From Brachycybe producta (lineage: Eukaryota > Arthropoda > Diplopoda > Playtdesmida > Andrognathidae), in the NCBI GenBank assembly GCA_036925085.1, contig JAUPFP010000006.1, forward strand, positions 1,577,131 through 1,641,130: a stretch of 64,000 nt of DNA. The letters are read 5' to 3'. Position numbers and translations under genes: made by a program. Positions 11,499-50,065 of this stretch are shown piece by piece (within the stretch, counting starts at the first letter, position 1; each line of letters starts with the position of its first letter). The notes beneath the pieces were generated by a model. It was given only the letters and a program-made list of their open reading frames with translations, did not search any database and was not told the origin of the DNA.

Positions 11499-11859
11499 GA
11501 TCACACATGCTGAAAAACCAAGAGAAAAAGTAGAAATTCAAAAACTAGAATTCAGTTATATTTTATGACAATCAGTTAGAAATCGGGGGGAACTTCAGTT
11601 GGCTCCGCCCTTGTTATGACGACCGGCAACTTCTAATTGGTTTGTTGTGTGGTTCGACGTTAAGAAGAGGCGGAGCATGTGACGGTAGACTACATAACCA
11701 GCCAATTAGAAGTTGCCGGTCGTCATAAAAAGGGCGGAGCCAACTGAAGTTCTTTCTGATTTCTAACTGCCTGTTATTTTATGGTCCTTTCTTTAGCATG
11801 CAAAGATACAAGGCGAGCTTCTGATTTAAAAATGGGTATTTTTTTCAGCGTGTGTGATC
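11499..11859. mobile_element. Foldback MITE, family C (copy 2), interrupted
   Basis: Ends GATCACACATGCTGAAAAA and TTTTTTTCAGCGTGTGTGATC. Its interior is split by a family A element at 11,568-11,774, which is therefore younger. Confidence 0.75.
11568..11774. mobile_element. Foldback MITE, family A (copy 2), perfect 9-bp TSD
   Basis: Palindromic element from ACAATCAGTTAGAAATC to GATTTCTAACTGCCTGT, flanked by perfect TATTTTATG duplications at 11,559-11,567 and 11,775-11,783. It is the clearest proof that family A makes 9-bp duplications. The CRE octamer seen in other copies is mutated here (tgacggta). Confidence 0.9.
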
Positions 11860-18091: not shown

Positions 18092-21000
18092 TCACTGGAG
18101 AGTACTCGACGGATGTTGCAATTGTGCGAAGAGGTAAAAAAAATATATATATATATTATAAGGGGAATCTTCCCCTATTATTCTCCCGTTACCCCCCTTT
18201 CTCCCAGTCCTCCTCCTACTTTATATATTACGGCCCCCTTTTCTCCTATTGTTTTTTTTTGTTTAAAAAAAAAGTGTTTTATTTTGAGTTAAAAAGGTTA
18301 CAGTTCAAGAATCGTGTAGGAGAAAATATAATTAATTTTGAAGCAACCGAATACTATTTGCTTTTTATTTTCAGAAAAAGAGAGAGAGAAAAAAAAAGGA
18401 TAGAAAAGAAGAAATTTTGCTTTTACTAAGTTTTGGAAGAAAAAAAATTGGTGGATTGTGTGAATCTGCTTTCAAAAAACAAAGGTTAAACAACACCTCA
18501 GATAATAGGTTTTTTTTTGTGTGTGTGAAATGACGATGAATGACTTTTTTGAGTAATGTTGATAAATATTGAATTCTTATTCATTGTTAACTTAGTAGAG
18601 AATATATAGTATCCCTGAATGAGGGCAATCACTGCAAGCACGCTGGTTTAAAATGTCCCTCGTTGTGTGGCATTAGAAACCAAACGCGACTAAAGTAAGC
18701 GCCAAGCTGAACAAGCACCAAATTAAAGAAATGCCAGGCTAAACAAGCACCAAATTGAAGAGATGTCAAGCTAAACGATCGCCTAATTGAATGAATGCTA
18801 AGCTGGACAAACACGAAATTCAATAAATACTAAGCTAAACAAACGCCAAGCTGAACAAGCGCCAAATTGAAGAAACGCCAAGCTGAACAAGCGCCAAATT
18901 GAAGAAATGCCAAGCTGAATAAGCGTCAAACTGAACAAGCACCAAATTAAACAAATACTAAGCTAAACAAACGCTAAACTGAACAAGCGTCAAATTGAAG
19001 AAATGCCAAGCTGAATAAGCGCCAAATTAAACTAAACAAGTGCCAAATATAAAACTAAACAGCGAAATAGAACGAACAGTTTGGCGTTTGTTCAATTTGG
19101 CGTTGATTTAGTTTAGCGCTTAATAAATTTGCTGTTAGATCGGCGCAACATTAGTTAGTAATAAAATTCATCTTTATGTCAAAAAAGAGGTTACTTTGCT
19201 TATTAGAAATGAGTTTTTGATGAAGTTTTACAAAGCTTGTTAGAAACTAGAAGTGTAAAAGAGTAACGGTAAATAATTTCATGACTCCGACATCTTTCAT
19301 CTTATGTTTAAAAAATAGTCCGATTGCGTTTATTCGGATTTTACTTTAATCGTTTTTCAAACTGCGACTTAGTTAACGAATAAAATTACTTCTTATGTGA
19401 TTATTTTTAAGCTTTTTTTCTGGGGGGGGGGGGGGAGTCTAACTAATTTTGAAGCACCGGTTACAACAAATAGTTATACCGAATTTACCATTTAAAATAT
19501 GAAACTAAAATTGATGAAGTTTTATCAGAATGTTGAAACCCTAGCCAGAATTTTAACGAAATGTCGCCTTTAATTATATATAAATTATCCTTAATTTAGT
19601 CTTAATTTGATTTCAGTCTTCGTTTCTTTTCTTTTTTTCTTCATATTTCTTAATCTCTTTTCTAAAGGATGTCTTTCTATAATTCTTGAATATCAAGAAC
19701 CATGAAGCCAAGATTATTAACAAAAAATTTCATCTAAAAATAGTATTCGATTGCTTCTGTTTCCGGTTTTTTTTTATCTCAGTCGGGAAGAGGGGGGGGG
19801 GGGGGATTGAAGATCGAATGGTTCCATCAGTGTATTTCTTTTGAATAAGGGGTTATATGTGGCTTTTTTTGTTAATCATTATTATAATTAATACCATATT
19901 TATGGTCAGTTATTTTAATATTTAGCAAAACGAATTTAAGGTATTTTATCATCCATAAAAATATATTTGGCACAAATCAAAAGAAATGTAAAGACAATGG
20001 TTAATATATTTAAAAGATGACTTATACCTAGTACACACACCTGATAATTTAAATGCGTTTAAATAATAAACTTGTTCTACAGAGCCCTGTGAAGGACAAC
20101 AAACAATATGTCGAATTCAATTTATTTAGTTAATAATCTGAAAATATTGAGTTAATACTTAAATATAATTATATAAACTATTGACATTAAAATATTGATT
20201 TAGTATTTTTCAATTTAAAATATTAATAATAAAGTCAATTTTTATTTGTGATTCATGTCCTTAACTGGGTTCCGTATAATTCACCTAAACACATTTAATT
20301 TGAATTCATTTAACTCATGTGTGAGTACAAGGTATTAGATAAGTTTGGGGGGTGGTTAGGTCTGGATCACACATGCGGAACAACAAGCAGAAAATAGAAA
20401 TAAAAGTTTCAGCTATGTGAATTTCTATGTTTCTTCGCGTACAACTGTTCTCGCACATGTTAGCAGAAAAGATTTCAAAAGACGTTTTTGAGTTTATAGA
20501 AAAGGGATGAAAGGATAGGAGGGTGAGAAGCCTGGAGAACGAATTTCTATTGGCTGATAAAATGGGATTCTGCGTGACAAGAAGAAAGAATCTCATCTTT
20601 TTTTTCTGCCTACTTTCAGCTAAATGAATAGAATGAAATTATTCAAATTAGATAATTTTTTTTTCTCTCTCTCTCTGCATGTGTGATCTTTGTTTAAGAG
20701 AAGGTTCACACATGTAGACAAGAATCTCACTTAAAAAAAATGGAATTTCTCTAATTTGAATAATTCTAATCTATTTATATGGCTGATATGTAGAAGAAGA
20801 GAAAAAAACCGGTGAAATTGTTTCTTCATGCATAGAATTACATGTTATCTATCAGCCAATAGAATTGCGTCTTTCAGAAGCAGTATCTTTTATGGTTTTT
20901 TTCTATAAACTCAACAATGTTTTGTTGTTGTAATGTGTTGAGAACCTTTTGAATGCGACGGAAAGCAGAAAAAAGAACTGAAACTACATTCTGATTTCGT

Positions 21001-24000: not shown

Positions 24001-27000
24001 CTTTAAATTCGTCTGATAAAATATAAAAAAGCAAGATTTCAAAGGAATTTCAACAAAAAAAATTGTAAAGAAATGATTTCATTGATTTCCTGGAACATGT
24101 TGTTAATAAGAAACGTGCTTTGATATTATTTTTTTTCTCTCGTTTTTCTCTGTTGATTCCTTATTTTGTATAACTTCACCAGTGTGTCTGCTGCTGTCTC
24201 TTCTGTCACAAAAGAAAGAACCCCTTTTTAAAATTCACAAATTCTCGAGAGAATAACAATTTTATTCTTAAATCTTTAAGAATAAAATTTAACAGTGGAA
24301 CATTTAACTTTGAACCCTCTAAATAGGGTTCTAATATAAGAAAAGTGTGTTCGATTTTACTGTATAGAAAGTTTTTTTTTCTTTTTCTCAATATTGGAAC
24401 CCTGTTTAGAGGTTTCAAGTGCGACATTTTCTTTTTGGAACTAATAAATCGTTAGTCACAAAAAATCGGTTAAATCACAAAGGAAATCGGACATATCACA
24501 AAAAAATCGGTTAAATCACAAAGGAAATCGGAGAAATCACAAAAACAAATCGGTGAAATCACAAAAAAAAACGGTTAATCACAAAAAAATCGGTTAATCA
24601 CAAAAAATCGGAGAAATCATAAAAAAAAATCGGATAAATCACAAAAAAATCGGTTAATTCACAAAAAAAATCCTTCTAAAAAAATCACAAAAAAAAATCG
24701 GAGAAATCATAAAAAAAAATTGGATTAATAAAAAAAAATCGGATAAGTCACAAAAAAATAGGAGAAATCACAAAAAAATCGGTTAATTCACCAAAAAAAT
24801 CGGTTAAATCACAAAAAAAATCGGTTAAATCACAAAAAAAAATCGGAGAAATCACAAAAAAAATCGGTTAAATCACAAAAAAAATCGGTTAAATCACAAA
24901 AAAAATCGGTTAAATCACAAAAGAAAATCGGTTAAATCACAAAAAAATCGGAGAAATCACAAAAAAAATCGGAGAAATCACAAAAAAAATCGGTTAATTC
25001 ACAAAAAAATCGGAGAAATCACAAAAAAAATCGGTTAATTCACAAAAAATCACCAAAAAAAAAAAAATCGGAGGTATCACAAAAAAAAATCGGTTAAATC
25101 ACAAAAAATCGGAGAAATCATAAAAAAAAAAATCGGAGAAATCATAAAAAAAAAATAGGAAAAATCATAAAAAAAAATAGGAAAAATCACAAAAAAAATC
25201 GGAGAAATCACAAAAAAAAAATTGGAGAAATAAAAAAAAAATCGGATAACATTACATTTTCGGTTCGGTCCTTTAGAATAATATACAATTTTCTTTTAAC
25301 ACAAAAATGTATTCTAATAACTTCCATTTCGTGTTAAACGGTTTCCGCTGTATTATTTCTCTTTTCTAAAAGTGATAAGACGCACTGTTGAAGTTGTGCT
25401 TTGGTTAAATAGATGTGGCTTTATGGATGCTGTAAATGTATTACACAGCAAATTTCTGACGTCACAATGATGTCAAACGCCCCTTGAATGAACGACCTAC
25501 GACGGCCTTTGCTATTATCTGCTTCACAACAGATGCACCAATCTTCTAATGACGTCACTAATTGTCTAACGTTATTCATATCTGTAAAGACACATCGACA
25601 TAACCATAGCATTATTAGGTGCTTTAGGGAACCGTTTTCGAATCTTCCCTGTGACCACAACATCTTGAATGTAGATTGCGGGAAGATTCTGAACTGTCGT
25701 CCTCTCTAAGGGGTTTGGAATACACAGACAAATATTTTGAAGCACTTTTTGACTGCAAAAATGTTGTCTCAGGTGAATTTGAGCTTTTCTCTATGGAAAG
25801 ACTCGAGGTGTTCAGTTTTGGCGACAACCCGACTTTTATTTTTGCAGTTGAAAAGTGGTGTCTGTGTGCCAATGGCCTAAAGCATCTCTACCACTTTTCC
25901 CGTTTCCTCCTCGTCCTCCTTCATAAATACCCCCAATTCATTCACTAATCCACCCCCCACTCTGCAGAGCAAGGATGCTGGCATACGCACTCTGGTAGCC
26001 CTGGACGAACAGGGAGGTAAGATTTACCCCACAACACAAAAAATGTAATAAAAATATAAGAAACTATTGTTCCCTGTAATTTCCTACGCACACCACTACC
26101 ACTATACGTTTCCAGTCCTGAAAGTACGTTTCCACTGAGACTCCATGAGTCTGTAGCATAATCTTGCCAACAAAATACTTTGTTTAGAATTTTAAAAAAA
26201 AATGTTGCAAAAGGAATTGAAATGTCGCACAAGTAATTAGAATGTTGAAAAAGCATTTGAAATGTTGCAAAACGAATTAAAATGCTGCAAAAAGAATTGA
26301 AATGTTGCAAAAGGTATTCAAATGTTGTACAAGGAGTTAAAACGTTGCAAAAGGTATTGAAATGTTGCACAAGGAGTTAAAACGTTGCGAAAGGTATTCA
26401 AATGTTGCACAAGGAGTTAAAACGTTGCAAAAGGTATTCAAATGTTGCAAAAGATATTAAAACGTTGCAAAAGGTATTGAAATGGTGCACAAGGAGTTAA
26501 AACGTTGCAAAAGGTATTGAAATGTTACACAAGGAGTTAAAACGTTGCGAAAGGTATTCAAATGTTGCACAAGGAGTTAAAACGTTGCGAAAGGTATTGA
26601 AATGTTGCAAAAGATATTGAAATGTTGCAAAAGATATTGAAATGTTGCAAACGGAATTAAAATAATACTTTGCTGATGTTGCAAGCAGCCATTCCAAGCG
26701 GGGAAAAAAGTTATTTCGTCCTAAACAAATGTGCGCATATACTGTAGATAATGGGGTGGAATGGCCCCTCACCAATTGAAGATTTGTTTATGGTTGCAAC
26801 AACATGTTGTAATAAAAACACAAAAATTATATCCACATTTTGATGAAAAATGTTTTAAGACTCATGAGTATAAGTTGGAAACGATGCTTGAGAACTTTAT
26901 TTGGACCTGGAACTTCTTCTCTCTTTTATCATTCCCACTTTTTTTTTACTTGGTGGCCTTTCTTAATATTCTAAATGTTGTACACTGTGCTATATATACT

Positions 27001-30000
27001 GTATATATGTGTGTGTGGTGATTATATCATTGTGCACGACTGACTCTTTTATGTGTTCTTTATATTCATTTATTTGTTGTGGTTGTTTTTAATATTACAC
27101 TAAAAAAATAAGATAGTAATATAACCATAATAAATGTGGTTGGTGCTTTTTTTTGCTGGCTTCCTTGCTTGTGTTGTCATTTTTCGTAAAACAAAAGAGG
27201 TTTTTTTCTTTTCTTGGTTTTTTATTTTTAGAAAAAAAGGTGTCTCTTCTTCTTCAGTAGGAACACATTGAGGTCGTTTGCTTCTGTCATACATTATATA
27301 TATCGGTCATGTTCATAAACGAAATTAGAGAGAAAAAAAAAGTCGCAACAACGTAAATTAGAGCGTTTTTTGGGAAGTAAAATATAAGTGATTAACTTGT
27401 TACTAGCTAACTTTCACTTGGAGGCTTCAAAAGCAACTTTTAAGGCCGGGTCCAGACTATAAAAGACAGGCAATTAGAAACCAGGACAATCAGAAGTTGG
27501 CTCCGCTCTTTTTATGATGAACGCAACTTCTAATTGGTTGGTTATATAGTCTGACGTCACATGCTCCGCCTCCTTTTCAACGTCGAACTATACAACAAAC
27601 TAATTAGAAGTTGCCGGTCGTCAAAAAAAAGGGTGGAGCCAACTTCTGTTTGTCCTGATTTCTAATTGCCTGTGACTAAAAGAGAACAACGAACCGAACA
27701 GTGTAGACGGTTTTCCGAACATTTGTCTATAAGATTCCGATCCACCAGTTGTCGACACATCAAAGAATGTTTGTGTTCGGGCCAGGAGCAGTTTGGATGC
27801 CTCCGCGAACATTTTCCTCGAACTTCCAGTCATTGACGGTTCTGAGAACATGATGCGAACATGTTCTTTGTTCAAGTTTGAACACTCCGGTCGTCATAGT
27901 GAACAGAACAAGGCACACCGAACTGTGTTCTGTTTGTTGTTCTGTTCTAGTCTGGACTCGGGACCCTGAAAGTGTTATTGAAACTAGAGTTGAAACAGTC
28001 ACTTGGATAGTATTTTCATATTGATATCTTTTAATATAACTTTTTATAGATAAAAAAATATTGTCTGTGTAAAGTTTGATTATTTTCAAACTGACATAAA
28101 AAGTTTATTTTGAAAGATAATCAACTTAAGTGTCCCTTAAGTGATTGCTCTACTCTTCTAGTCTAGTTTTTATAATCGCTTTCAAATTTCTCTTTAATTT
28201 TGCTCCTGAAAGACAGAAAAAAAACATAAAAGTGGAATCATAAATAGATTTTCACGTTGATATCTTTCAAAATAAACTTTTAGCAAATGATCGAATTTCA
28301 GTTATTCGGTTATTTTTTGGTCCAACCTGAATGAAGTGTGACTAATCGAAAATTTGAAATTTCCAGTAAATGTTTATTTTGTTAAAGATTTTGAGTAAGA
28401 TTCATTTACTCTTCTAGTTTCTAAAAAAGAATTTTTGAAATGTGTTGTATCTTTAATTTCTTGCGAACCTGACAGAAATAAAAGCACAGAATCAAAATTG
28501 TACTTTTGTGTTCTGAAGAAGAATTTCGGCTTCTTTTCTATATTTCTTGCATGGTTTTTTTTAAAGTAAATAATCACACCAAGAACATTGTAAATAGATG
28601 TGTTTAGGGCACGATCGACGTTTTTGCTGCCATTTTTTTTTTACAGTCAAATGTGTTGTAGTTTTTTTATTTTTCTTATACTTAAAGTTCCAGGCAATTA
28701 GAAATCGGGACGAACTTCAGTTGGCTCCACCCCTTTTTATGACGACCGGCAGTTTCTAATTGGTTGGTTATGTAGTCTGACGTCACATGATCCGCCCCTT
28801 TTCAACGTCGAACCACACACAACACACCAATAAGAAGTTGCCGTTCGTCATAAAAAGGGGCGGAGCCAACTGAAGTTCGTCCCGATTTCTAATTGCCTGT
28901 CTTAAAGAGGGTTTTTTTCTTTTCTTTCTACATATTTTATTGTAGTTGTGCTTTCTAGTTAATTAATCGTCATTCCCATCACTCCATCATCATCATTATT
29001 ATACTTAAAAAAATATTAAATAAAACAACATAAGAAAGTTTTAGATTTCAATTTAATGATTTCGTTTATATTTTCATTCATTTATCCTTTCGGGTTTAGT
29101 TAAATGAGGTTTATTTTTTTTTTTTAAGAATTCAAGCCGCCATTTTTAAGGCTTAAAATTATTTTAATGTTTGTTGTTTTTTCTCTTCTTCTCTCAATTA
29201 TATATTTTCCTATCTTGATGTTGTTATTTTGCTATATTTCTTTCTATACTTAAGTTTAAAAAAAAAAGGTTTCTTTTCCTCTTTTCCTCCAAATATTTTT
29301 TTTTTAATCAAAGTTAAAATAAAATGAGAAGAAAAAAATAGCGCCTATATATGTGTGTATGTATATGTACACTTGTATGTATATTAGAGCAAGGAGGCTG
29401 GGATTCGAACCCTGGTTGCTCTGGATGATCAAGGAGGTAAGGTATAGAACCAACCTCGTCCTCCTCCTCCTCCTCCTCCTCATCCATTTCCTAATAATTT
29501 CCCCCCATCCCCCTCCGCCCCCCCCTTAACCTTGTTCACACTATCCCACGCACACATGAAAAACATAGTTCTCACTAAATACACACCTGTCAGTCAATCA
29601 ATTATAGTTTATCCTTTTAGTTTTTAGATGCTTTTTTTTATTTGGAATTTTAGAGAAAAAAAAAACAAATTCATCTTTGAAGAAGATGGAAAATTAGATG
29701 GGGGTTTAATTTAAAAGGTGGCTCATCAGTAAAGTGGTTCATAGACACAGTTTTAAAGTAACAACAGTAATACCAAGTACACATTTGATAATTTTAAGTG
29801 TATTTAAATAATAAACGTGTTCTACAGCGCCCCCTGTGAAAGGACAAACGAACAATATGTCGAATTCAATTTATTCAGTTAATAATTTGAAAATATTGAG
29901 ATAATACTTAAATATAATATATAAACTATTGACATTAAAATATTGATTTAGTATTTTTCAATTTAAAATATTAATAATAAAGTCAATTTTTGTGTTCATG

Positions 30001-33000
30001 TCCTTAACTGGATTCCGTATAATTCTCCTAAACACATTTAATTTGAATTCATTTAACTCATGTGTGTACAAGGTATTATACCTAGCACACACCTGATAAT
30101 TTAAATGCATTTAAATAATAAACGTGTTCTACAGAGGCCTGTGAAGGGCAAACTAACAATATGTCGAATTCAATTTATTCAGTTAATTAATCTGAAAATA
30201 TTGAGTTAATACTTAAATATAATTTATATATACTATTGATAAAATATTGATTTAGTATTTTTCAATTTAAAATATTATTAATAAAGTTAATTTTTATTTG
30301 GTTTATGTGTCCTTAACTGGATTCCGTATAATTCACCTAAACACATTTAATTTGAATTCATTTAACTCATGTGTGATTACATTGTACACACGTGAGTTAA
30401 ATGAATTCAAATTAAATGTGTTTTTGTGGATTAAATGTTAACGTGGGAGAAAATACACATTTGTTCAAATCGGAATATGTTTTTTGCTATGATGTGAACA
30501 TGAGTAATTGGTTAAAATTGATAGTTAAATATAGTTTAAATTATTGCTGAGCCACCTTAAAAGATTTTTTTTTTCTTTTTGTTTCGTAAATAGTTTTAAT
30601 TTTTCTTTTCTTATTTTGGTTTGCATGAGTTTTGTTTTGTTTTTCTTTTTGTTTTATAATCACGGTTTATAGAGTCAGGATTCTGGGGCACAAACACTCA
30701 TGTTATTGGATAAACAGGGAGGTAAGAATTAACAGAAATTAAACCCATCTCCACCTGATAAAATGATAAATAATTTACAAAAAAATCTTTTTTTTTTTAA
30801 AAAAAAGGGGAAAAATAAAAACGAACCCGTTTTCGCGCGATTTCCATTTTTATTTCTTGCGGTTTTTTTTTTTTCTTATTTAAAAATCGATTATCAAAAT
30901 CTCAAGAAAACATTTTCAAACATTTTCTTATTTTTTTTTTGTCTATTAGTTTTGTAAATTGAGGTTGTTTTACATTTTAAGCTTTTAAATTTTAATCTGT
31001 TTCTATGTAGAACGAAGAAAATATATCATTCTCTCTTTTCCTCTCTTCGCTTTGAAAACTCTTAAGCCGGATTCACACGGATCACTTTTTTTTTTGCCGC
31101 CACATAAAGTGGTCGTTTTTAGCAGACCAATGATTACATAATGTAGTTTTCACATGTGACATATAGTCAATTTTTTGCATCAAGAATTGGCGATGAGTCG
31201 GTTAATTCTTGCTTGCAAGTAGCAATGAATAGTTAAAAGTCCTGCAGCAAGTGACGATGAGTGGGTAAAGTCCTGCAGCAAGAATGAGCGACCACTTTCC
31301 TTTTGTTAGTGATGATTAAGATATATGATACCAGTGGTCCACACTAACTAACAGCAGGCAATTGTTTTTCATTGGTCGTTCGTGTGAAGCAAGCCGCGTC
31401 AACCAAATTGTGATGGCATGACAAATAAGCGCCCCAAAGTGGTTCGTGTGAAACCGGCCTTATTCCCCAACAACTACTTTTTTTTTAATCGGAAAACATA
31501 AAAAAGAAACCTATTACTTACTATGCATGAACAAATAACTTTTTAATTCTTTTCTCTATTTTTCTGAATGTTTTTCTTGCATGTTAGATTATTAAAACTA
31601 AATGTTTTTCCATTATTATTTTTTCTTCTTCTTCTTCTTAATTTTGACAAATGCAAATCGATGTTTTTTTGCCTGATTGTGATGTTGTTATCACTTAGAA
31701 TATTTCTTCCCTCACATAGTTTTCTTTTTATTAAATTTTAAATTTATTTCTGTGAACAACTTGTCCTGGATTCTAAAAAAAAACATTTATTATGAAGTTT
31801 ATTAAAACTGTTTTTTTAAACCAGTTTAAACCCCTTTTTCACATGAACCACTTTTTATTTAGTGGTCGAGTTCGACTGCAAAATGAAAGCGAAGACGACG
31901 ACCGGTGGTTGTGTTCTCGTTGACAATGTATTGCTGTTTAAGTCGTCCGGACTTTTTTTTTTAACAAGAGTGACCACACGCCGACTAAATGCAGTCGGCG
32001 TGTGGTCACAATTGTTGCAGTCGAATTCGAAACCACCAGACATGGTTTTCTGTAAAAGGGCTAAACATGAAATTGCAATTAGAAATGAATTATTTCGTAA
32101 TGGAATCCTGAGCAAGTTGTCCACACATTCATTATTTACAATTGTAACTTAATACAAAAAAAAAATCTGTTTTCGGAAAATACAGAACAACTGGACAGAA
32201 TTGAAGAAGGGATGGATCAGATTAACGCCGACATGAAAGAGGCTGAAAAAAATCTGACGGGAATGGAGAAATGCTGCGGACTTTGTGTTTGTCCGTGCAA
32301 CAAGTAACCCTCTTCCTCCTCCTCCTCCTTCTGCCTTCATGTTGCTCTTTTGAGTTTTAACTTAACGATTTAACTCTTCGTATTTTTTTTTTTAGAGCTC
32401 AGAGCTTTAAAGAGGACGAGAAGACCTGGAAAACAAACGACGACGGTAAAGTGGTTAACAACCAACCGACGCGCATTATGGACGAACGGAATGGTTTAGG
32501 TCCGACCGGTGGTTTCGTTGCAAAGTTAGCGAGTTTGATCATTTATTGTATTTGCAACGATTCTTTGGAATGCTTTACGATGTTTTTTTTTTGTGTGTGT
32601 CTTAGGATAACTAACGATGCTCGAGAGGATGAGATGGAAGAGAATATCGGACAAGTGAGCACAATGATCGGTAATTTGCGTAATATGGCCATAGACATGG
32701 GAAGTGAGATCGAATCACAGAATAGACAAATTGAACGGGTCAATCAAAAGGTTAGTTTGAAACGTGTGAAGAAGAAGAAGCTTTTAATCTTGTGTAAATG
32801 TGTTTTCTCCTTTGATTGTCGTCGTTTCTTTTTTTCTCTCTCTCTCTTGGAATATTTTGTGTCATTCATTTGCATGGCACTCGTTTTTAATTGTTAACTA
32901 ATAATTACGGCCCACAGTTTTTTTTTTTTAAAAAAATAGTGTCAACGTTTCGCAACGTCTTTGCTTTCGTGCTTTAACAAATTGTGTATTTTAACCCTCC

Positions 33001-35250
33001 TTCTTCATTGTGTGAAGTTGCTTCTGTACGACATTTTTTCCGAAGACTGCACCGGCAATAGTGTTCTATTTCGTCGATTTTTCTGTTTTGTTTTCTTAAG
33101 ATTTTTCTTTGCGAAAAGACAGCGTTTTCAGATGTTTTTTGCGCTTTGCAGGTTTTTGTTTCGAAATGCGTTTTTTTTTTCTAGTGGACTTCGGCATAAA
33201 TTTATAACACAGTGGTGAAAAAACCGTTTAAGATTGGTTTATAAACAACTCATTTTTGAAGTCTGTTTATTCTGTTTTTCAGAAGAACAAGATGAAGAGA
33301 AACTAGAAAATGTTTTAGAAACTAGAAGGGTATGCCTCAAACACTTAAGGTTTTCAAAATAAACTTTATAGGCAAAAATTAAAAAATATTGTCTACTTAA
33401 AGTTCGTTCATTTTCAACCTCACATAAAAAGTTTATTTTGAAAGATATCAACGTGAAAATACTCTTAAATGATTGATCTACCTTTCTAGTTTCTAAAACA
33501 CATTCAAGTTTCTTATCATTTTTTTTTGTAAGACAAAATAATCAAAGTTCAGAAAGGGGTTTCGTGGTTTCATTGTTAAATTATATTTTATGGGACTGAA
33601 CCAAAACAGTGGTGCTTTTAGGCCTAAGCGCGTGCCAATGCCCTCCAACTTTTAGGGACCAACGAAATCTCACAGCCGATATAAACGCGCAGCTGGACCG
33701 AAAATAATAGTTCGTGCTATCCAGTTTTTTGCGTTATCTGTTTTTATGTTAAACGGTTGTTTACTGTATTCAGTTTTTTTTAAAGCGATTTGCTGGAAAA
33801 GATCAACAAGCGAAAGTTTATTAAGGCTCGATAATGGCGCCGCGACACTTTACGCAGACCTACCCACAAAAGAATTGATGTCACATAATCAAAATATTTA
33901 AATATGAAGCATTTTTGGTCTAGACTGTTGCGAGTTTTTTTTTCTTCTAGTTTTTAAAGCCTTAGAGATTGATAGATTAGTGAAGCCGGTTTTAAAGTAC
34001 AAGGTGGGCCCATATATCATCTAATTTGGTTTGCCTATAATTTTGAAAATAATTACAAAAAAAAAAAACAATGGAATTTTTTTTTAAACATTTTTATTTT
34101 GTCCTTATATTTTTTTATTATTATTGTCCAAAAAATAATATCAGAGCCGAGTGGCCTCCTTCTCTGGTCGCTGTGCCGATGTTGGGCTTTTTTTATTGCA
34201 TTTTCCATCACTGTCACTTCAACATTTTGTCTGGTAGATTTTCCATTTCTTGGCTAATGTTGTGTTTGAGTTGTTCCAGTGTCCGTGGCTTGTTAGCATA
34301 CACTTTGATGTACAAATGGCCCTGCAGAAAGAGGTCTGGAGCTTTTAAATCGGGTGATCTTGGTGGCCAGTGCATGTTGCCAAAACGTGAGAGAAAATGT
34401 TTTGACTAAAAATAGTCACAATTTCCGCACAATTCATGTGGTGTGTGTGTATTTGTTCATTATGAATTTCGCACTACTGTGCTTGCACAACTGTAAACAA
34501 AATTATGACACATAATGTTTAAATACAAAATGGCGGCATTTTCAAGTAGGGTGATGATGACATTTGGGCCACCCTATTATAAACAAACACCCCATGAATT
34601 CTGGTTATTCTGTTTTTCAGAAGCAAAATTAATAGAGAAACTAGAAATACCGATATTGATACATTAAAAGCCAGAATTATACTGTAGGCGTTGATACACT
34701 TTTAATTTCTAGCAAGCAAACCTTGAATTATTCGAAGTTATTCTTGGAAATTTTAACAGTGTTATTACGTGAAAGAGTAAATTTTAACGGCGCGTCTGTT
34801 ATTTTTTTCGTGCTGCGCTCTTTACATCTGAAAATGCAGTCAATGTTTTCTTTTCATTTCAATTTTACGTTTATGTTGTCAAGTAGTTGGCTTTAGTTTA
34901 TTCGTTTTTTGTGCTTAACTGTTTTGTTTGCTTTTTTTTTCTGTTTGATTTTAGTTTTATTTTTTAATTTATTGTTTTACACAAATTTTATGTTAATATT
35001 GTTTTCTAGGCCACTTCGAATGAGTCTCGTATCAACATTGCCAATGAGAGGACAGCGCGGTTACTCAAAACATAAAATAACGCCCTTTCTAACCCTTTTT
35101 TCTAATTCTAAAAACAAAAAATGAATTTTAAAAGTTGGCACATTGTCACGTTGTTCCTCACACACGCACTCTGATTCTTCTTAGGGCATTTCGAACGAAT
35201 CTCGCATCAGCGCTGCTAACCAGCGAGCGACAAAACTACTCAAAGACTAA
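18092..35250 (+). CDS. SNAP25: SNAP-25, synaptosome-associated t-SNARE (5' exon not in view)
   Basis: A Qb/Qc SNARE that joins syntaxin and VAMP to drive vesicle fusion at the plasma membrane. Exons seen: 18,092-18,133 (ending RRMLQLCEE); one of three 49-nt exons 25,968-26,016, 29,388-29,436, 30,673-30,721; 32,186-32,303; 32,396-32,524; 32,606-32,750; then either 35,010-35,075 or 35,185-35,250, each with its own stop. The exon at 32,186 codes [12 protein letters not shown] and the cysteine-rich palmitoylation loop CCGLCVCPC. 32,396 codes the linker up to GGFVAK; 32,606 codes the second SNARE motif ([14 protein letters not shown] to QIERVNQK). All junctions keep phase with GT-AG signals. The vertebrate protein is 206 residues; the visible part gives about 175, so roughly 24-30 N-terminal residues are missing. 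Identity is certain; isoform use is inferred. Confidence 0.96.
18640..19080. repeat. Minisatellite, ~16/32-bp unit GCCAAGCTGAACAAGC
   Basis: Alternating 16-bp half-units 'gccaagctgaacaagc' and 'gccaaattgaagaaac', about 24 half-units, in the SNAP25 intron. The right flank (19,078-19,120) has the same words inverted ('agtttggcgtttgttcaatt'), so this array too sits in a foldback. Confidence 0.9.
20025..20334. mobile_element. MITE family D (copy 2), TTA TSD
   Basis: TACCTAGTACACACACCTGA to ATGTGTGAGTACAAGGTA, flanked by TTA. The interior matches the other D copies, for example 'aataataaacttgttctaca' and 'ttccgtataattcacctaaa'. Confidence 0.75.
20365..21043. mobile_element. Head-to-head pair of family C foldbacks
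   Basis: Two family C elements in tandem (20,365-20,688 with ends GATCACACATGCGG / GCATGTGTGATC, and 20,704-21,043 with ends GTTCACACATG / CGTATATGTGAC). Their interiors are reverse complements of each other ('gaaattattcaaattaga' against 'tctaatttgaataattc'; 'gagtttatagaaaa' against 'ttctataaactc'), so the whole ~680 bp forms one large imperfect palindrome. Confidence 0.7.
21557..21760. mobile_element. Foldback MITE, family G (copy 1), perfect 8-bp TSD
   Basis: Inverted ends ACTAGCATTAGCCCAGTAGT and ATTAGCCC-type complement ending TAATGCTAGT, arms over 70 bp, flanked by perfect CCTTTGAC at 21,549-21,556 and 21,761-21,768, which fits hAT. Each arm carries AAGATGGC (YY1-like) next to GCGCATGC (NRF1-like); the right arm has a perfect GCGCATGCGC at 21,722-21,731. 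Confidence 0.85.
21815..22029. mobile_element. Foldback MITE, family A (copy 3)
   Basis: ACAGGCAATTAGAAAACGGG to CCCGTTTTCTAATT(c)GCCTGT. The loop has a CRE octamer at 21,906-21,913 followed by catgctccgccc. The target duplication is not clear in this copy. Confidence 0.85.
22111..22664. mobile_element. Foldback MITE, family K (copy 1), expanded
   Basis: Ends TAGTGCTCGGATTTTTATGC and GGCATAAAAATCCGAGCATTA; second pair 'gcacaagagccaattgt' / 'acaattggcacttgggg'. The flanks ttgataac / ctgataat suggest an 8-bp duplication with two changes. The interior holds three tandem ~131-bp units, which makes this copy twice as long as copies 2 and 3. Confidence 0.75.
22219..22600. repeat. Three tandem ~131-bp units inside family K copy 1
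   Basis: Each unit starts 'gaggctagtactttctagtt' and contains 'agtaatcagacatttagcct' and 'gtagttgctctaatgatgat'. Units start near 22,219, 22,349 and 22,481 and are almost identical, so the expansion is recent. Confidence 0.9.
23415..23620. mobile_element. Foldback family H copy
   Basis: 'gttttagaaactagaagggt', 'gacatctttcaaagtaaact', 'aaagtttattttgaaaca' and 'tacccttctaaagacaga' in the usual order. A family A element follows within 25 bp. Confidence 0.65.
23643..23848. mobile_element. Foldback MITE, family A (copy 4), perfect 9-bp TSD
   Basis: ACAGGCAGTTAGAAATCGG to TTCTAACTGCCTGT, flanked by perfect AAAACCACC at 23,634-23,642 and 23,849-23,857. CRE octamer at 23,730-23,737. Confidence 0.9.
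24440..25250. repeat. Minisatellite, ~18-21-bp unit AAATCGGTTAAATCACAAAA
   Basis: About 40 imperfect units alternating 'atcggttaaatcacaaaaaa' and 'atcggagaaatcacaaaaaa', with A-run length varying from unit to unit. It lies about 720 bp upstream of SNAP25 alternative exon A. Confidence 0.95.
25968..26016 (+). CDS. SNAP25: SNAP25 alternative exon A (first SNARE motif)
   Basis: 49 nt coding [16 protein letters not shown] plus one base. Acceptor after a strong pyrimidine tract (ccccccactctgcag); donor gtaaga. It corresponds to vertebrate residues 39-54 and includes the zero-layer glutamine (Gln53 in mammals). This version is closest to the vertebrate sequence. Confidence 0.95.
26200..26655. repeat. 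Minisatellite, ~20-bp unit AATGTTGCAAAAGGTATTGA
   Basis: About 22 units, with a 40-bp higher-order pattern alternating 'aaaacgttgcaaaaggtatt' and 'gaaatgttgcacaaggagtt'. It starts about 185 bp after exon A. Confidence 0.95.
27440..27968. mobile_element. Foldback element split by a family A insertion
   Basis: Outer ends AAGGCCGGGTCCAGACTA and TAGTCTGGACTCGGGACCCT. After removing the insertion the arms continue as 'aagagaacaacgaaccgaac' facing 'gttctgtttgttgttctgtt'. Family not recognised. Confidence 0.6.
27466..27673. mobile_element. Foldback MITE, family A (copy 5), 9-bp TSD
   Basis: ACAGGCAATTAGAAACC to TTTCTAATTGCCTGT; right flank gactaaaag, left flank gactataaaag (same word with a 2-bp insertion). 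CRE octamer at 27,552-27,559. Confidence 0.85.
27970..28450. mobile_element. Foldback family H copies (two, degraded)
   Basis: 'attgaaactagagttgaaac', 'atatcttttaatataacttt', 'aaaagtttattttgaaagat', 'actcttctagtctagttttt', then a second partial unit with 'atctttcaaaataaactttt' and 'tactcttctagtttctaaaa'. Confidence 0.55.
28690..28900. mobile_element. Foldback MITE, family A (copy 6), 9-bp TSD
   Basis: CCAGGCAATTAGAAATCGGG to CCCGATTTCTAATTGCCTGT, flanked by cttaaagtt and cttaaagag. CRE octamer at 28,778-28,785. It sits about 490 bp upstream of SNAP25 exon B. Confidence 0.9.
29388..29436 (+). CDS. SNAP25: SNAP25 alternative exon B (first SNARE motif)
   Basis: 49 nt coding [16 protein letters not shown] plus one base; acceptor tatattag with a weak pyrimidine tract, donor gtaagg. 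It differs from exon A only by D-to-E and E-to-D at the protein level but widely at silent sites, so it is an old, conserved duplicate. Confidence 0.93.
29771..30075. mobile_element. MITE family D (copy 3)
   Basis: TACCAAGTACACATTTGA to TGTGTGTACAAGGTA; the right TTA is shared with the next copy, so copies 3 and 4 are in direct tandem. Confidence 0.75.
30079..30420. mobile_element. MITE family D (copy 4)
   Basis: It starts TACCTAGCACACACCTGA right after the shared TTA. The right end has an extra inverted repeat ('ttaactcatgtgtgatta' facing 'gtacacacgtgagttaaatg'), so the boundary is approximate. Confidence 0.7.
30673..30721 (+). CDS. SNAP25: SNAP25 alternative exon C (first SNARE motif, divergent)
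   Basis: 49 nt coding [16 protein letters not shown] plus one base; acceptor gtttatag, donor gtaaga. It keeps the zero-layer glutamine and the T-L-x-x-L-D spacing but changes K40Q, A42S, I44A, R45Q, V48M, M49L and E52K relative to mammalian numbering, which removes charge on one face and reverses it near the zero layer. Reading frame, size and splice phase match exons A and B exactly. Confidence 0.88.
31062..31463. mobile_element. ~400-bp element with CTTAAGCCGGATTCACACG ends
   Basis: Inverted ends CTTAAGCCGGATTCACACGG and CGTGTGAAACCGGCCTTA, with inner 'ataaagtggtcg' / 'cgaccactttcc'. Ends of this style (GCCGG plus TTCACAC) are common on MITEs; the class was not determined. Confidence 0.6.
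31838..32070. mobile_element. Foldback family L copy (diverged)
   Basis: 'agtggtcgagttcgactgca' faces 'tgcagtcgaattcgaaacca', and 'gtgaccacacgccgactaaa' faces 'gtcggcgtgtggtcacaa'. It ends about 115 bp before the SNAP25 exon at 32,186. Confidence 0.65.
33290..33555. mobile_element. Foldback family H copy
   Basis: 'gttttagaaactagaagggt' to 'cctttctagtttctaaaaca', with 'ttttcaaaataaacttta' facing 'aaaagtttattttgaaagat' in the centre. It lies in the last SNAP25 intron. Confidence 0.75.
34001..34575 (-). mobile_element. Tc1/mariner element with transposase C-terminal remnant
   Basis: Inverted ends AGGTGGGCCCATATATCAT and ATGACATTTGGGCCACCCT. The - strand at about 34,390-34,190 codes [18 protein letters not shown] followed by a segment with [12 protein letters not shown], the typical C-terminal part of a mariner-type DDE transposase after the third catalytic acid. 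Stops and a deletion remove the rest, so it is inactive. It is a different lineage from the element at 5,298. Confidence 0.8.
35010..35075 (+). CDS. SNAP25: SNAP25 alternative last exon alpha
   Basis: 66 nt with acceptor ttttctag, coding [21 protein letters not shown] and a stop. It joins in phase 0 after VNQK and completes the second SNARE motif. Compared with the beta exon, Q becomes E and K becomes R in the last turns of the helix. Confidence 0.92.
   Translation, partial: ATSNESRINIANERTARLLKT
35185..35250 (+). CDS. SNAP25: SNAP25 alternative last exon beta
   Basis: 66 nt with acceptor ttcttag, coding [21 protein letters not shown] and a stop. It is closest to the vertebrate C-terminus (ANQRATKMLGSG). 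It lies 109 bp after the alpha stop, so an alpha transcript would carry beta in its 3' UTR. Confidence 0.92.
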   Translation, partial: GISNESRISAANQRATKLLKD

Positions 35251-45100: not shown

Positions 45101-48100
45101 TGATTTGTAGCTCTTCGGAAACATGACGTGTGTTTTTTGGTAACGGTACGTCCGCAACAGGCAATCGGAACTCCGTTTCGTTTTCACGATCCGTTCATTC
45201 CTCAAGTTGGTCTCACTTATGTGAGAGGTTGCGAGATCGAGGGAATGCTCGATGTGAATGGACGTGTTATCGAGGAAGGTCCCGAACCGAGGCCCAGCCT
45301 TCCCGGTATCAGTCGTACTTTTAGAGTTCTTCTCGATAGCAATCAATATCGGCTTGACATGGACCAAACGGCACAAGGGAAAGAGGTTAGAGTCGAGTTG
45401 ATATCAATTGTTTAAATCTACCTACATAGCCTTAAACTTTTTTAGGATATTTATGAAACGTTCAATATAATGTTGAGAAGAAAACCAAAAGAGAACAACT
45501 TTAAAGCTGTTTTGGAGACGATCCGAGACTTAATGAACACCAACTGCGTGGTTCCGGATTGGCTTCACGACATCGTCATTGGTTATGGTGATCCAGCTGC
45601 TGCACATTACTCTAAGTATGTGATCGTTTGCTCTTTTGCAAGTTTCGTTACGCGATTCCGTGTTTTTTTTATTTAGTATGCCAAATCAGATTGCAACTTT
45701 GGATTTCAATGATACTTTTTTGGATTTCGACCATTTGGTAGCAAGTTTTCCACAGCATAAGATTCAGCACAACGTTGACGACCCCACAAAACTTGTTCCG
45801 CCGTTCAAGTAAGTGTCTTTACACTGTTTTTTGATCTGCATTGAAATGAAACTGATGATTTATTTTAATGAACGTTCTATCATTGTAGGTTGACTTTCAA
45901 GGGAGTTAAAGAAACAAAGAAGCGTGGTCGAGACGAGCACGACTCGGAGCTTTCCAAAGAGGAAGCCGAGAATGTTATCGTTGTTAAACCTCACGTGATT
46001 CCACAACGAGGGCCGTACTCTTATAATCAGCCAAAAAGGTTTCATCTTAAATGTTGTTTCGTTTGCTTTTACTTCTTTTCTAAACTTATTTTTTCATATA
46101 GAAACACTGTTCCTTTCACTCCTACTCAAGTGGAAGCGATCAGATCGGGAATGCAGCCGGGTCTTACTCTTGTAGTTGGTCCTCCTGGTACGGGAAAAAC
46201 CGACGTTGCCGTTCAAATCATTTCCAATCTTTATCACAACTTTCCGGAGCAAAGAACACTTATTGTGACGCATTCAAATCAGGCTCTTAATCAGCTGTTC
46301 ACAAAAATAATGGCTTTAGACGTAGAGGAGAGGCATCTTCTTCGTTTGGGACACGGAGAAGAAGCTCTGGAGACGGAAAAGGACTTCAGTCGGTCGGTTT
46401 ACGAGACTAGAAGTAACTTATACGTTATAAATGTCCATGTTTGTTTGTTTTTGTTTACGATAGATATGGTCGGGTCAATTACGTTCTTGCAAAGCGTCTG
46501 GAACTTCTACAAGAAGTGCAACGTTTACAAGAAAGTTTAGAGGTTCCCGGAGATGTTGCGTATACCTGTGAAACGGCTGGGCATTTCTTTTTATATCAGG
46601 TGCACATTCGAGAGTTAATTCATTGTTTTATAGATTAATAATATATCTCATAACGTTGTTTGGTTTAGGTTTTGTCTCGTTGGGAGCAATTTCTTGGCAA
46701 GGTGAAACCGGGTGTCGGAAAGACGGTTTCAATAGAATCCATTGGTTCTCTTTTTCCGTTCAATAACTTTTTTACGAATGCTGTACAACCAATTTTCAAA
46801 GGACGTTCTTACAAAGAAGATATGGACATTGCAGAGGGTTGCTTCTCTTACATTAAACGCATCTTTACTCAGCTCGAAGTACAAATATTTCGAAACCACT
46901 TTGTAGAACACAGTGTAAATTATTTTTCCGTTTTATTAAAATATAGGAGTTTCGCGCTTTCGAGTTGCTTCGTAGTGGTCTGGATCGGTCTCGTTACCTT
47001 CTTGTACGCGAGGCTAAAATCATTGCAATGACCTGTACGCATGCTGCTCTCAAACGAAAGGAACTCGTAGAACTAGGATTCAAAGTACGAAAATTACAAA
47101 ACTTGAAGACAGTTAAATGACCAAAAAAAACCCTGGTTAAATGCTGGAATTCTCGTTTCAGAGGCTAAATGTCAAACTAGCATCTAAAACTATTGAACTC
47201 GAGCCTCTAACCACGGCCTTCCACTAAAAAAACGCGTTTTTGAAAATGTTCATGTTGATAATCGACATTTTTTTTTTCATTGTAGTATGATAACGTCCTC
47301 ATGGAAGAATCTGCTCAAATTCTGGAAATCGAGACTTTCATTCCTCTCCTTCTACAGGTCACTTGTGTTAAAGAACTTTAGCGTCGGTTTCACGAGTTAA
47401 ACTTTCGTTCGATTTTAGAATCCTGAAGATGGATTCAACAGGCTAAAACGCTGGATTATGATCGGTGATCACAATCAGCTTCCGCCCGTCATCAAGAACA
47501 TGGCCTTTCAGAAATATTCAAACATGGAGCAATCACTTTTTAGACGTTTCGTTCGACTAGGAGTTCCGACTGTCGATCTAGATGCTCAGGGTCGTGCGAG
47601 ACCAAGGTCAATTACAATTTTCTTGTTTGTTGATTTACTGGCTTTTGATATTCATTTGGGGTTTTCTCCATGTTTATAGTATTTGTTCGCTTTATAATTG
47701 GCGTTATCGTAAACTCGGCAATTTGCCGCATGTTTACACGTGGCCGGAATACACGACGACTAATGCCGGCTTTCAATTCGATTATCAGCTTATTAATGTC
47801 GAGGATTTTAACGGCGTTGGAGAATCAGAACCAAATCCTTATTTTTATCAGGTCTAGAAATTTGGCAATTTTACTCGTCATCTACGTTATCTTTGATTCT
47901 TGTTTGTTTTTTGATACACAGAATCTTGCCGAGGCCGAATATGTTGTAGCCATTTTCATGTACATGCGCTTAATCGGTTATCCTGCTGAAAAGATTTCTA
48001 TTCTGACTACCTACAATGGTCAAAAGCACCTTATAAGAGATGTTTTGAATGAAAGGTGTAGCCGCAATCCGTTAGTCGGACTACCGCACAAAGTGACGAC

Positions 48101-49015
48101 GGTGGACAAGTATCAAGGGCAACAGAACGATTACATTTTATTGTCTCTTGTAAGAACAAAGGTTGTCGGTCATATTAGGTGTGCAATAGTATTTTATCGT
48201 TGTTTATAAAGTCTTGATGTAGCGTTTTTGAATAACGTTTGTTTTGAATTGTTAGAGATGTCCGTCGTCTCGTCGTTGCGATGTCTCGAGCTCGATTGGG
48301 GCTTTACATCTTTGCTCGTGTTCGTCTTTTTCAGAACTGCTTTGAATTGACTCCAAGTTTTAACCTGGTTGAACAAGAAATTTTAATGTCAGCTTTTCAG
48401 AATTTATGAGTTTTATTTTTATTTTAGCTGATGCAGCGCCCTTTAAAACTTCATCTTGCTCCTCACGAGTTGTATCCAACAGAACGGAAGGTCGACGAGT
48501 CGTTGTGCGATGAACCTATGATCATCGAAGATATGCCTCAGATTGCAAAATACGTCTACGATTTCTACCAACAGAAAATCACTGTCTTGCAATCCACCTT
48601 AGCTGTAATTATAATTTCGTCTGTTTTCATTCCTTTCTTTATTTTGGTTATTTCATGAGAGATTTTTTGCTTTTTATGTATTTTTCAGGCCGTTAAAAAA
48701 ACTGAGATAGAAGTTGTACCCGAACAGTCAACTATCTCTGAACCCGTAGCTTATAATGACGATGACGATGATGTGGATTCTGACGATGACAGTAACGACG
48801 AGGAATCAAACGAAGCAATTATAGAGGAATCGACAACAAATGACGAAATCCAAACCCTCGTAGAAGAAACCAGCGTTTCTATGGAGGAAACTGAGACGAA
48901 CGTGGGTGAAAGTGAAAATCCAGATGAAGAAAATAACGTCCAGGTGGAAGAACCAGAAAAGTCCAATCAAAATGAAAACTCCGAAGAAGAAATAATTCCC
49001 ATGGAAGATTCGTAA
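42128..49015 (+). CDS. AQR: Aquarius, intron-binding spliceosomal RNA helicase
   Basis: SF1 (Upf1-like) helicase of the intron-binding complex, which contacts the intron upstream of the branch point. 31 exons: 42128-42196, 42271-42330, 42416-42456, 42673-42708, 42799-42919, 42991-43128, 43200-43268, 43349-43522, 43589-43767, 43848-43961, 44029-44132, 44207-44309, 44371-44491, 44571-44663, 44738-44786, 44860-45038, 45111-45385, 45446-45615, 45677-45808, 45889-46038, 46102-46392, 46464-46599, 46669-46878, 46947-47084, 47286-47357, 47419-47606, 47680-47851, 47922-48178, 48256-48367, 48428-48604, 48689-49015. Total about 1,485 residues, the length of human AQR. An N-terminal ARM-like region is followed by Walker A GPPGTGKT (exon 21), motif II as EESAQ (exon 25), [10 protein letters not shown] (exon 26), TTYNGQK and QGQQNDYI (exon 28) and [13 protein letters not shown] (exon 29). 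The tail is acidic. The exon 12 donor is GC. The exon 8/9 junction is one base out of frame with canonical sites. Confidence 0.97.
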
Positions 49016-49160: not shown

Positions 49161-50065
49161 TCATTTGCAGAGTGAAGATGAAGACAAACTCTCGTAATAT
49201 TTCGTCTTCGCCTTTAACATTTCCAATTTTGCAGCATGGATTTCGTTTTTTCTCTCTTCTTCGTTTAAAAGTGATTCCCAGGCTTTCTCGTAGTACAGAC
49301 GCTTTGCTTCAGCACACCGTACAATCGTATCGGACACGTCGATGGACGTCGTCGTTGTATTCTTCGCTTCGTACGAGACACTTCTCGGTAACATTCGATC
49401 GTGGTTCGTCCATTTCTGTTGGGCTTCGGAACTGTTACTCACAGCAACACTTCCTTTACTCTGAAAGAACAGATGAACAGCATTACAAGTTAGAATTGGC
49501 TGAGTTTTAATGGGTAACAGGAATACCGTTAACTCTTCGTTATCATCTTCTCTCGATGCGTCTCCATCGTCTGATAGATCTGAAAAGAAACGAAGCAAAC
49601 AGGTATTTAAAAATAAAAGCGCTTGAGAAATAAGTTAACAGCACCTTGATTCGTTTCTCTTTCGTATAGAGGTGTATCCGAATCATAAGGATTCGTTAAC
49701 GGTTGGATACTTTTGCTTAGAAAGCTCAGAACTTCATCTCCAATGAGACCAGGATTGGAATGGTCTCCATTATTGTTTGATGACGACGTATTATTGACAT
49801 CGTGATATTTCTTCTTGTAGTTTCTCTTGATGTTATCGTAAGCAGTTCTAAGACAGGTCCATTCTCTAGGAACGGTGACAGACCCGTTGAACTCGTGAGC
49901 CACATTCTTCCATGCTTTTTCCTTGTTACGTATAGATGCTGTGTCTGTCTTTTTATTCTCCAAAACGTTCTTGTACTTAATCACAAGGAAACTTAGAAGA
50001 TCTTTCTCTTCTCGCGTGAAGTTTTGTGATCGTTTTCGCTTCTGTTTCACTTCAACGTCCATCAT
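49161..50065 (-). CDS. Myb/SANT-like DNA-binding protein, MSANTD3-like
   Basis: Three exons 49,645-50,065, 49,527-49,579 and 49,460-49,161; 257 residues. Residues ~14-90 form a Myb/SANT-like trihelix domain of the MSANTD3 type (FTREEKDLLSFLVIKYKNVL, KAWKNVAHEFN, TAYDNIKRNYKKK), with a basic start (KQKRKRSQ). The middle is acidic (DLSDDGDASREDDNEE). The C-terminal ~55 residues are a charged coiled coil (EAKRLYYEKAWESLL, LEMLKAKTKYYE), as in human MSANTD3. Two adjacent ATGs exist at 50,065 and 50,062; I took the first. The domain family is thought to be related to Harbinger transposon Myb proteins, but this copy looks like a normal spliced host gene. Expected role: nuclear DNA binding; targets unknown. 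Confidence 0.85.

What the first reader, a model, noticed from the sequence alone, without database searches (positions are those of the whole stretch)
25968..30721. SNAP25 has three interchangeable 49-nt exons for the heart of the first SNARE helix
Exons A, B and C (25,968, 29,388, 30,673) all code the same 16-residue segment with the same splice phase, and all keep the zero-layer glutamine. Vertebrate SNAP25 also has a mutually exclusive pair, but there the duplicated exon is the next one (from EQLD/ERIEEG through the cysteine loop). Here that exon is single and the exon before it is triplicated, so this appears to be an independent invention. Because 49 is not a multiple of three, skipping all, or including two or three, shifts frame; only exactly one exon works. 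Exon C alters residues on layers just before the zero layer (I44A, R45Q, E52K in mammalian numbering), which should change complex stability or partner choice. I do not recall a published case.
Basis: partly seen in the sequence, partly recalled or inferred. Interest (0 to 1): 0.92.

Follow-up and report, generated by a model that had tools for sequence, protein, structure and literature searches.

The report
Switchable calcium-sensor-docking exon in SNAP25
An arthropod nerve-release gene (SNAP25) carries three swappable versions of the short exon that, in mammals, encodes the helix gripped by the calcium sensor synaptotagmin; similar swaps are annotated in insects, ticks and snails, so this may be an old way to change how tightly release is tied to calcium.

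Summary
Three 49-nt exons (A 25968-26016, B 29388-29436, C 30673-30721) encode SNAP25 residues 39-54, with consensus splice sites and one phase. Including none, two or three stops translation early; only one works. A and B differ by 8 synonymous but 2 amino-acid changes, so both look selected.

The interpretation needs changing. (1) It is not a local invention: annotated isoforms in insects, chelicerates, crustaceans and molluscs carry alternative exon-4 segments, and the closest (unnamed) relative has a C-type segment on ~1-kb contigs, implying spliced RNA. (2) C keeps every core-layer residue. It changes K40, E52 and V48, residues of the synaptotagmin-1 primary interface; K40Q is also one of three interface differences between mammalian SNAP-25 and SNAP-23. 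The synaptotagmin-1 contact residues are intact in this genome.

Best reading: an exon switch that loosens SNAP25 from synaptotagmin-1. Anatomy and isoforms in relatives are shown; release phenotype, mutual exclusion in this species, and a single ancient origin are inferred. Seven open-library paper searches on the splicing (some listings capped) showed no description.

The parts
18092..18133 (+). SNAP25 coding exon 3 ([14 protein letters not shown]), the exon before the alternative cluster
25968..26016 (+). alternative exon 4[17 protein letters not shown] (canonical type: K40, E52)
29388..29436 (+). alternative exon 4[17 protein letters not shown] (canonical type: K40, D52)
30673..30721 (+). 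alternative exon 4[17 protein letters not shown] (interface-altered type: Q40, M48, K52)
   Evidence: C-type segments in relatives
32186..32303 (+). exon 5, 118 nt, found once (EQLDRIEEG...[11 protein letters not shown] cysteine loop; position of the vertebrate 5a/5b exon)
32396..32524 (+). exon 6 (linker)
32606..32750 (+). exon 7 (second SNARE motif, to RVNQK)
35010..35075 (+). last exon, acceptor 1: [25 protein letters not shown]
35185..35250 (+). last exon, acceptor 2: [25 protein letters not shown] (would be 3' UTR when acceptor 1 is used; inferred, no AATAAA seen by eye between them)

Best explanation
This is an arthropod SNAP25 gene with a cluster of three tandem, probably mutually exclusive 49-nt exons for residues 39-54, plus two alternative last-exon acceptors. 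Exon 4 nearly coincides with the helix (rat residues 37-53) through which SNAP-25 docks the C2B domain of synaptotagmin-1. Choosing A or B gives a SNAP25 with the full contact set; choosing C keeps the SNARE core layers but removes or reverses charged contacts (K40Q, E52K) and changes V48, giving a SNAP25 that should still zipper but couple less tightly to synaptotagmin-1. That predicts less synchronous and more spontaneous or asynchronous release, or use in non-synaptic secretion, much as SNAP-23 differs from SNAP-25 in mammals. Mis-splicing (none, two or three exons) shifts the frame and should be removed by nonsense-mediated decay. Shown: anatomy, frame logic, coding constraint between copies, isoforms with alternative segments in other species' records, intact synaptotagmin-1 partner residues. 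Strongly implied: expression of a C-type exon in a close relative. Inferred: mutual exclusion in this species, weaker synaptotagmin binding, the release phenotype.
For: Anatomy and unique frame solution. A/B constraint. The best match, P0001 (91% identical, whole query), has C-type SQEVGTQTLILLDKQG in a 218-aa ORF on 3 contigs of at most 1052 nt; the gene here spans about 37 kb, so P0001 comes from spliced RNA or a processed copy. P0002 (contig 1388 nt) carries the A segment. P0001, P0002 and the window form one clade (99/94) in a tree with exon 4 masked and the ends cut. In 13 species that I picked from the listings, two or three exon-4 versions share species and contig length, e.g. Ornithodoros (2 x 2 with two C-termini), Bacillus rossius (3), Cloeon (3, on that contig one of them only in a fused model), Tachypleus, Pomacea, Physella, Patella. 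Of 107 distinct segments from 256 of 261 listed proteins, sorted by the 14 positions other than 40 and 52: near-canonical ones keep K40 in 12 of 13 and an acid at 52 in 13 of 13; divergent ones in 4 and 20 of 94, both lost in 73 of 94. In the 93 non-canonical ones by my first rule, G43 is kept in 89, T46 in 88, L50 in 92, Q53 in 93. K40, D51, E52, E55, Q56, D166 are listed as SNAP-25 residues of the interface, SNAP-25A and SNAP-23 differ at or near it only by K40Q, L47I, V48T, and peptide P9 is residues 37-53 (PMC8967716, passages). Interface mutants V48F and D166Y raise spontaneous and desynchronise evoked release (PMC10911398, passages). SNAP-23 in place of SNAP-25 gives asynchronous release (PMC4244210, abstract). 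The closest synaptotagmin-1-like gene of this genome keeps R281, V292, L294, E295, Y338, R398, R399.
Against: No RNA from this species, and no junction reads of any species were examined. Named isoforms in other species are mostly automatic annotation; three listed proteins join two exon-4 copies (P0007, P0040, P0058). Some alternative segments keep E52 and change only K40 of the charged contacts (e.g. SQDVGIKTLVMLDEQG, SHEVGMKTLVMLDEQG), so the interface is not altered alike in all. The 94 divergent segments are related by descent, and the queries carried C-like exons, so the lists are enriched for them. V48F and D166Y also had gain-of-function effects not explained by loss of synaptotagmin-1 coupling. 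Net charge of the segment is -1 for A, B and C alike. No docking-selector RNA pairing was recognised.
Confidence: 0.66

Rival explanations
1. Exon C mainly tunes SNARE zippering or SNARE partner choice, not synaptotagmin docking.
For: Seven of 16 residues change, several next to layer residues (44, 45, 49), and interface mutants in mouse also changed association with partner SNAREs (PMC10911398).
Against: All five layer positions are kept in C; among 93 non-canonical segments positions 43, 46, 50 and 53 are kept in 89, 88, 92 and 93, while K40 and an acid at 52 are lost together in 73 of 94 divergent ones.
Confidence: 0.17
2. The extra exons serve mainly to switch SNAP25 output off: double inclusion or skipping makes a decay-bound transcript, and the protein difference is secondary.
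For: None, two or three exons all give a premature stop 341-449 nt upstream of the last junction.
Against: A poison exon need not keep 14 of 16 residues across 8 synonymous changes (A/B), nor Q53 in each of 93 non-canonical segments.
Confidence: 0.08
3. One or more of the exons is a decaying duplicate that is not used.
For: No RNA from this species was available.
Against: All three have intact splice sites and open frames; the copies show coding constraint; a C-type segment is in a full ORF on ~1-kb contigs in the nearest relative.
Confidence: 0.06
4. Question of age: the alternative exons of arthropods and molluscs arose separately (convergent tandem duplication) and are not one ancient pair.
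For: Of 8 arthropod alternative segments, by the closest mollusc segment 4 are nearer to an alternative one, 2 tie and 2 are nearer to a canonical one; by the mean, 6 of 8 are nearer to the canonical ones. Sixteen residues cannot carry a deep tree.
Against: Tachypleus and Mercenaria share the identical alternative segment SQDVGIKTLVMLDEQG, 4 and 6 changes from their own canonical ones, and Lingula shows the same one.
Confidence: 0.45

Closest known systems
Vertebrate SNAP25 exon 5a/5b mutually exclusive pair
   Same: Same gene, tandem duplicated exon in the first half of the protein, one-of-n choice.
   Different: There the duplicated exon is the next one (found once here); here it is exon 4, in three copies, covering the synaptotagmin-docking helix.
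Mammalian SNAP-23 versus SNAP-25 (separate genes)
   Same: K40Q is shared by exon C and SNAP-23, and V48 is changed in both (M in C, T in SNAP-23).
   Different: A gene pair, not an exon choice; SNAP-23 keeps E52 and has L47I (from PMC8967716), exon C has K52 and keeps L47. No second SNAP-23/25-like gene was found in this genome (the same searches also missed this gene's own exon 4, so sensitivity is limited).
Arthropod mutually exclusive exon clusters (Dscam, Mhc and others)
   Same: Tandem homologous exons, same length and phase.
   Different: Three copies only; no RNA docking-selector system recognised here.
Named SNAP25 isoforms (X1-Xn) in public arthropod and mollusc records
   Same: Alternative exon-4 segments and alternative C-termini of the same kind.
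   Different: Mostly automatic annotation; no paper describing the cluster, its age or its function was found in my searches.

Membership tests
SNAP-25 family (t-SNARE, two SNARE motifs with cysteine loop) | SNAP-25 family domain and zero-layer glutamine in the first motif | tested here: met
   PF00835 at 77.2 bits, cut-off 25, on the C isoform; Q53 in A, B and C
Mutually exclusive exon cluster | tandem exons of equal length and phase with homologous sequence | tested here: met
   49/49/49 nt, same phase; A/B 39, A/C 31, B/C 30 of 49 identical bases
Mutually exclusive exon cluster | only one exon gives an open frame | tested here: met
   8 of 8 combinations computed; 3 open, all single
Mutually exclusive exon cluster | transcripts contain one and only one of the exons | not testable with these tools
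   no RNA of this species; relatives' ~1-kb contigs contain one each (P0001, P0002)
Mutually exclusive exon cluster | a mechanism of exclusion (RNA docking-selector, steric limit, U2/U12 mismatch) | tested here: inconclusive
   introns between copies 3.4 and 1.2 kb and GT-AG, so no steric or U12 block seen; of 37 inverted-repeat pairs the 25 shown look like palindromic repeats and T-runs
Vertebrate SNAP25 exon 5 pair | duplication of the exon that carries the cysteine loop | tested here: not met
   that exon is found once
SNAP-23-like functional variant | altered synaptotagmin-1 primary interface (K40Q, L47I, V48T) | tested here: inconclusive
   C has K40Q and V48M, keeps L47, adds E52K

The most novel reading that the evidence does not exclude
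Protostomes inherited one SNAP25 gene with a switchable synaptotagmin-docking helix: a 'coupled' exon and a SNAP-23-like 'uncoupled' exon chosen by splicing. Vertebrates later split the same two roles between SNAP-25 and SNAP-23 genes. In the species of this window the switch has three positions, and a second switch sets the C-terminus. (Odds lowered from 0.33 on recounting: by mean distance, 6 of 8 arthropod alternative segments are nearer to mollusc canonical ones.)
Probability: 0.3. Interest if true: 0.87.

Novelty: new variant of a known kind. Interest (0 to 1): 0.65.

Why it matters
How neurons set the balance between synchronous, asynchronous and spontaneous release is a live question, and the synaptotagmin-SNARE primary interface is at its centre; the disease mutation V48F lies in these same 16 residues (PMC10911398). 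If invertebrates naturally swap this helix by splicing, nature offers a ready-made set of variants, and the idea can be checked in flies, bees or snails with existing RNA data and gene editing. It would also suggest how an animal with a single SNAP-25/23-type gene could obtain a second release mode.

Tried and rejected
Layer-residue explanation of exon C: rejected on numbering (I67 = +4). A reading that this is unique to the species: rejected. A second SNAP-23/24-type gene: only this locus came back with a Drosophila-type query at E up to 1 (3 matches) and a SNAP-23 query at E up to 10 (2 matches); neither search returned this gene's own exon 4, so short exons are missed. RNA docking-selector: 25 of 37 inverted pairs were shown, none recognised as one partner for three exon-side copies; not tested statistically. 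Species: COI was found on contig C442 and translated but not compared with any database; in the SNAP25 tree the window sits with two unnamed sequences, outside a weakly supported group (94/78) of the sampled insects, crustaceans and chelicerates, the long-branch copepod Eurytemora apart. A myriapod is my guess only. The bacterial promoter scan has no bearing on a eukaryotic gene and is not used. Papers: ten searches; some searches asked about the splicing and listed 0 of 0, 15 of 15, 8 of 8, 12 of 25, 6 of 7, 5 of 5 and 10 of 36 papers; no title or abstract start showed an invertebrate SNAP25 exon-4 cluster. Searches asked about function. Term searches inside PMC2581893, PMC3228551, PMC5740500 and PMC8164606 showed none. 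Subscription papers are mostly not held; Hatje and Kollmar 2013 (cited in PMC5740500) was not seen and may list Snap25.
Full report
What is there. The window holds most of one SNAP25 gene on the + strand (Pfam SNAP-25 family, 77.2 bits against a cut-off of 25). Its first coding exon lies about 2 kb upstream of the window, so the coding part spans about 37 kb. Exon 3 is 18092-18133. Then come three 49-nt exons: A 25968-26016, B 29388-29436, C 30673-30721, each with AG before and GTAAG after, in the same phase. Exon 5 (32186-32303), exon 6 (32396-32524) and exon 7 (32606-32750) were found once each. Two acceptors at 35010 and 35185 give different C-termini, [21 protein letters not shown] and [21 protein letters not shown]. 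With any single exon 4 the frame is open for 222 residues; with none it stops at codon 71, with two or three at codon 84. Exon-4 peptides find only these three places in the window above noise.

Is it chance or relic? A and B differ at 10 of 49 bases, 8 of the changes synonymous; pS 0.64, pN 0.06. C differs from A and B with pS 0.64-0.70 and pN 0.28-0.32. With 16 codons these are rough, but they point to constraint on the protein.

It is not alone. The three protein searches list 120 of 2538, 120 of 2567 and 120 of 2497 matches, 261 different proteins in all; one gave an exon-4 segment by my pattern and 5 did not. The queries carried C-like exons, so such segments are enriched. The nearest, P0001 (91% identical), carries SQEVGTQTLILLDKQG, a C-type segment, and a C-terminus like the window's first one; it sits on 3 contigs of at most 1052 nt, so it comes from spliced RNA or a processed copy. 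P0002 carries the A segment exactly. That the versions share a contig is inferred from species name and contig length. Two-exon fusions in Cotesia congregata, Aphis craccivora and Cloeon (P0007, P0040, P0058) show that the annotation is not perfect.

How old? Tachypleus and Mercenaria have the identical alternative segment SQDVGIKTLVMLDEQG, 4 and 6 changes from their own canonical segments, and the brachiopod Lingula shows the same one (P0254). That favours one origin before the protostome phyla split. Against it: of the 8 arthropod alternative segments compared, the closest mollusc segment is an alternative one for 4, a tie for 2 (Ornithodoros, Copidosoma) and a canonical one for 2 (Cloeon's second, Arctopsyche); by the mean, 6 of 8 are nearer to the canonical ones. 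Sixteen residues cannot settle it. The window's A/B pair may be a later local split.

What the exon does. The peptide P9, the unstapled form of the fusion-blocking stapled peptide SP9, is SNAP-25 residues 37-53, [17 protein letters not shown] (PMC8967716, passages); exon 4 encodes 39-54. That paper lists K40, D51, E52, E55, Q56 and D166 as SNAP-25 residues of the primary interface with synaptotagmin-1 and says SNAP-25A and SNAP-23 differ at or near it only by K40Q, L47I and V48T. Exon C has Q40, M48 and K52; A and B keep K40, V48 and an acid at 52. E55 and Q56 (exon 5) and the aspartate of the second motif (counted by me as D166) are shared by all isoforms. The layers are at 39, 43, 46, 50, 53 if I67 is +4 (PMC10911398; spacing recalled), and C keeps them all. 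Over 107 distinct segments, sorted by the 14 other positions, K40 and an acid at 52 are kept in 12 and 13 of 13 near-canonical segments, and in 4 and 20 of 94 divergent ones; 73 of 94 have lost both. The sequences are related and the lists enriched, so these are descriptions, not a test.

The partner. Of the 33 pieces found with a rat synaptotagmin-1 C2B query, I took the contig C93 gene because its three pieces have the highest identity (95, 80, 70%); the piece with the best E-value is another locus at 44%. The C93 gene keeps R281, V292, L294, E295, Y338, R398 and R399, so the docking surface for A and B is there.

Likely working. In mouse neurons, interface mutants V48F and D166Y raise spontaneous and desynchronise evoked release, partly with gain-of-function effects not due to loss of synaptotagmin-1 coupling (PMC10911398, passages), and SNAP-23 in place of SNAP-25 gives asynchronous release and more spontaneous events (PMC4244210, abstract). 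By analogy the C isoform should zipper normally and be less tied to synaptotagmin-1. This step is inference. Net charge of the segment is -1 in A, B and C, and some alternative exons elsewhere keep E52 and lose only K40, so the degree of uncoupling would vary.

What is known. Vertebrate SNAP25 has a mutually exclusive exon 5 pair; its authors state that the duplication was not described in Drosophila and Torpedo (PMC2581893, passages). Seven searches of the open library on the splicing listed no paper on an exon-4 cluster (the listings of 29, 37 and 56 did not show all matches). The isoforms do exist in public annotation. I therefore call it a new variant of a known kind.

Noticed in passing
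window 35010-35250: Two last-exon acceptors 175 nt apart give two SNAP25 C-termini; alternative C-termini also appear among listed isoforms of Ornithodoros, Polistes and Pomacea.
   Followed up: partly
window 27463-27682, 28681-28903; by eye also about 11560-11780: Palindromic repeat elements (arms up to 103 nt, 82-92% complementary) with a shared core about GGCAATTAGAAAT; they look like a short inverted-repeat transposon family in introns.
   Followed up: no
window 26200-26662 and 24456-25249: Tandem arrays of 40-nt and 21/41-nt units inside the SNAP25 introns on either side of exon 4A.
   Followed up: no
window 51858-54857 (+), probably extending over 50731-56361: FANCM-like gene: Helicase_C and FANCM-MHF binding domain in the 999-aa ORF; the wider extent is my reading of neighbouring ORFs.
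   Followed up: partly
window 45890-46540 and 47670-48209 (+): Helicase exons (AAA_11, AAA_12), possibly Aquarius; the Aquarius insert domain matches below its cut-off.
   Followed up: partly
L012 (contig C1, near 12697392): Near full-length copy of mitochondrial COI with one extra TAA on a large contig, beside the C442 copy (L011); probably a nuclear copy.
   Followed up: no
window 49607-50065 (-): ORF with a Myb/SANT-like DNA-binding domain, perhaps from a mobile element.
   Followed up: no
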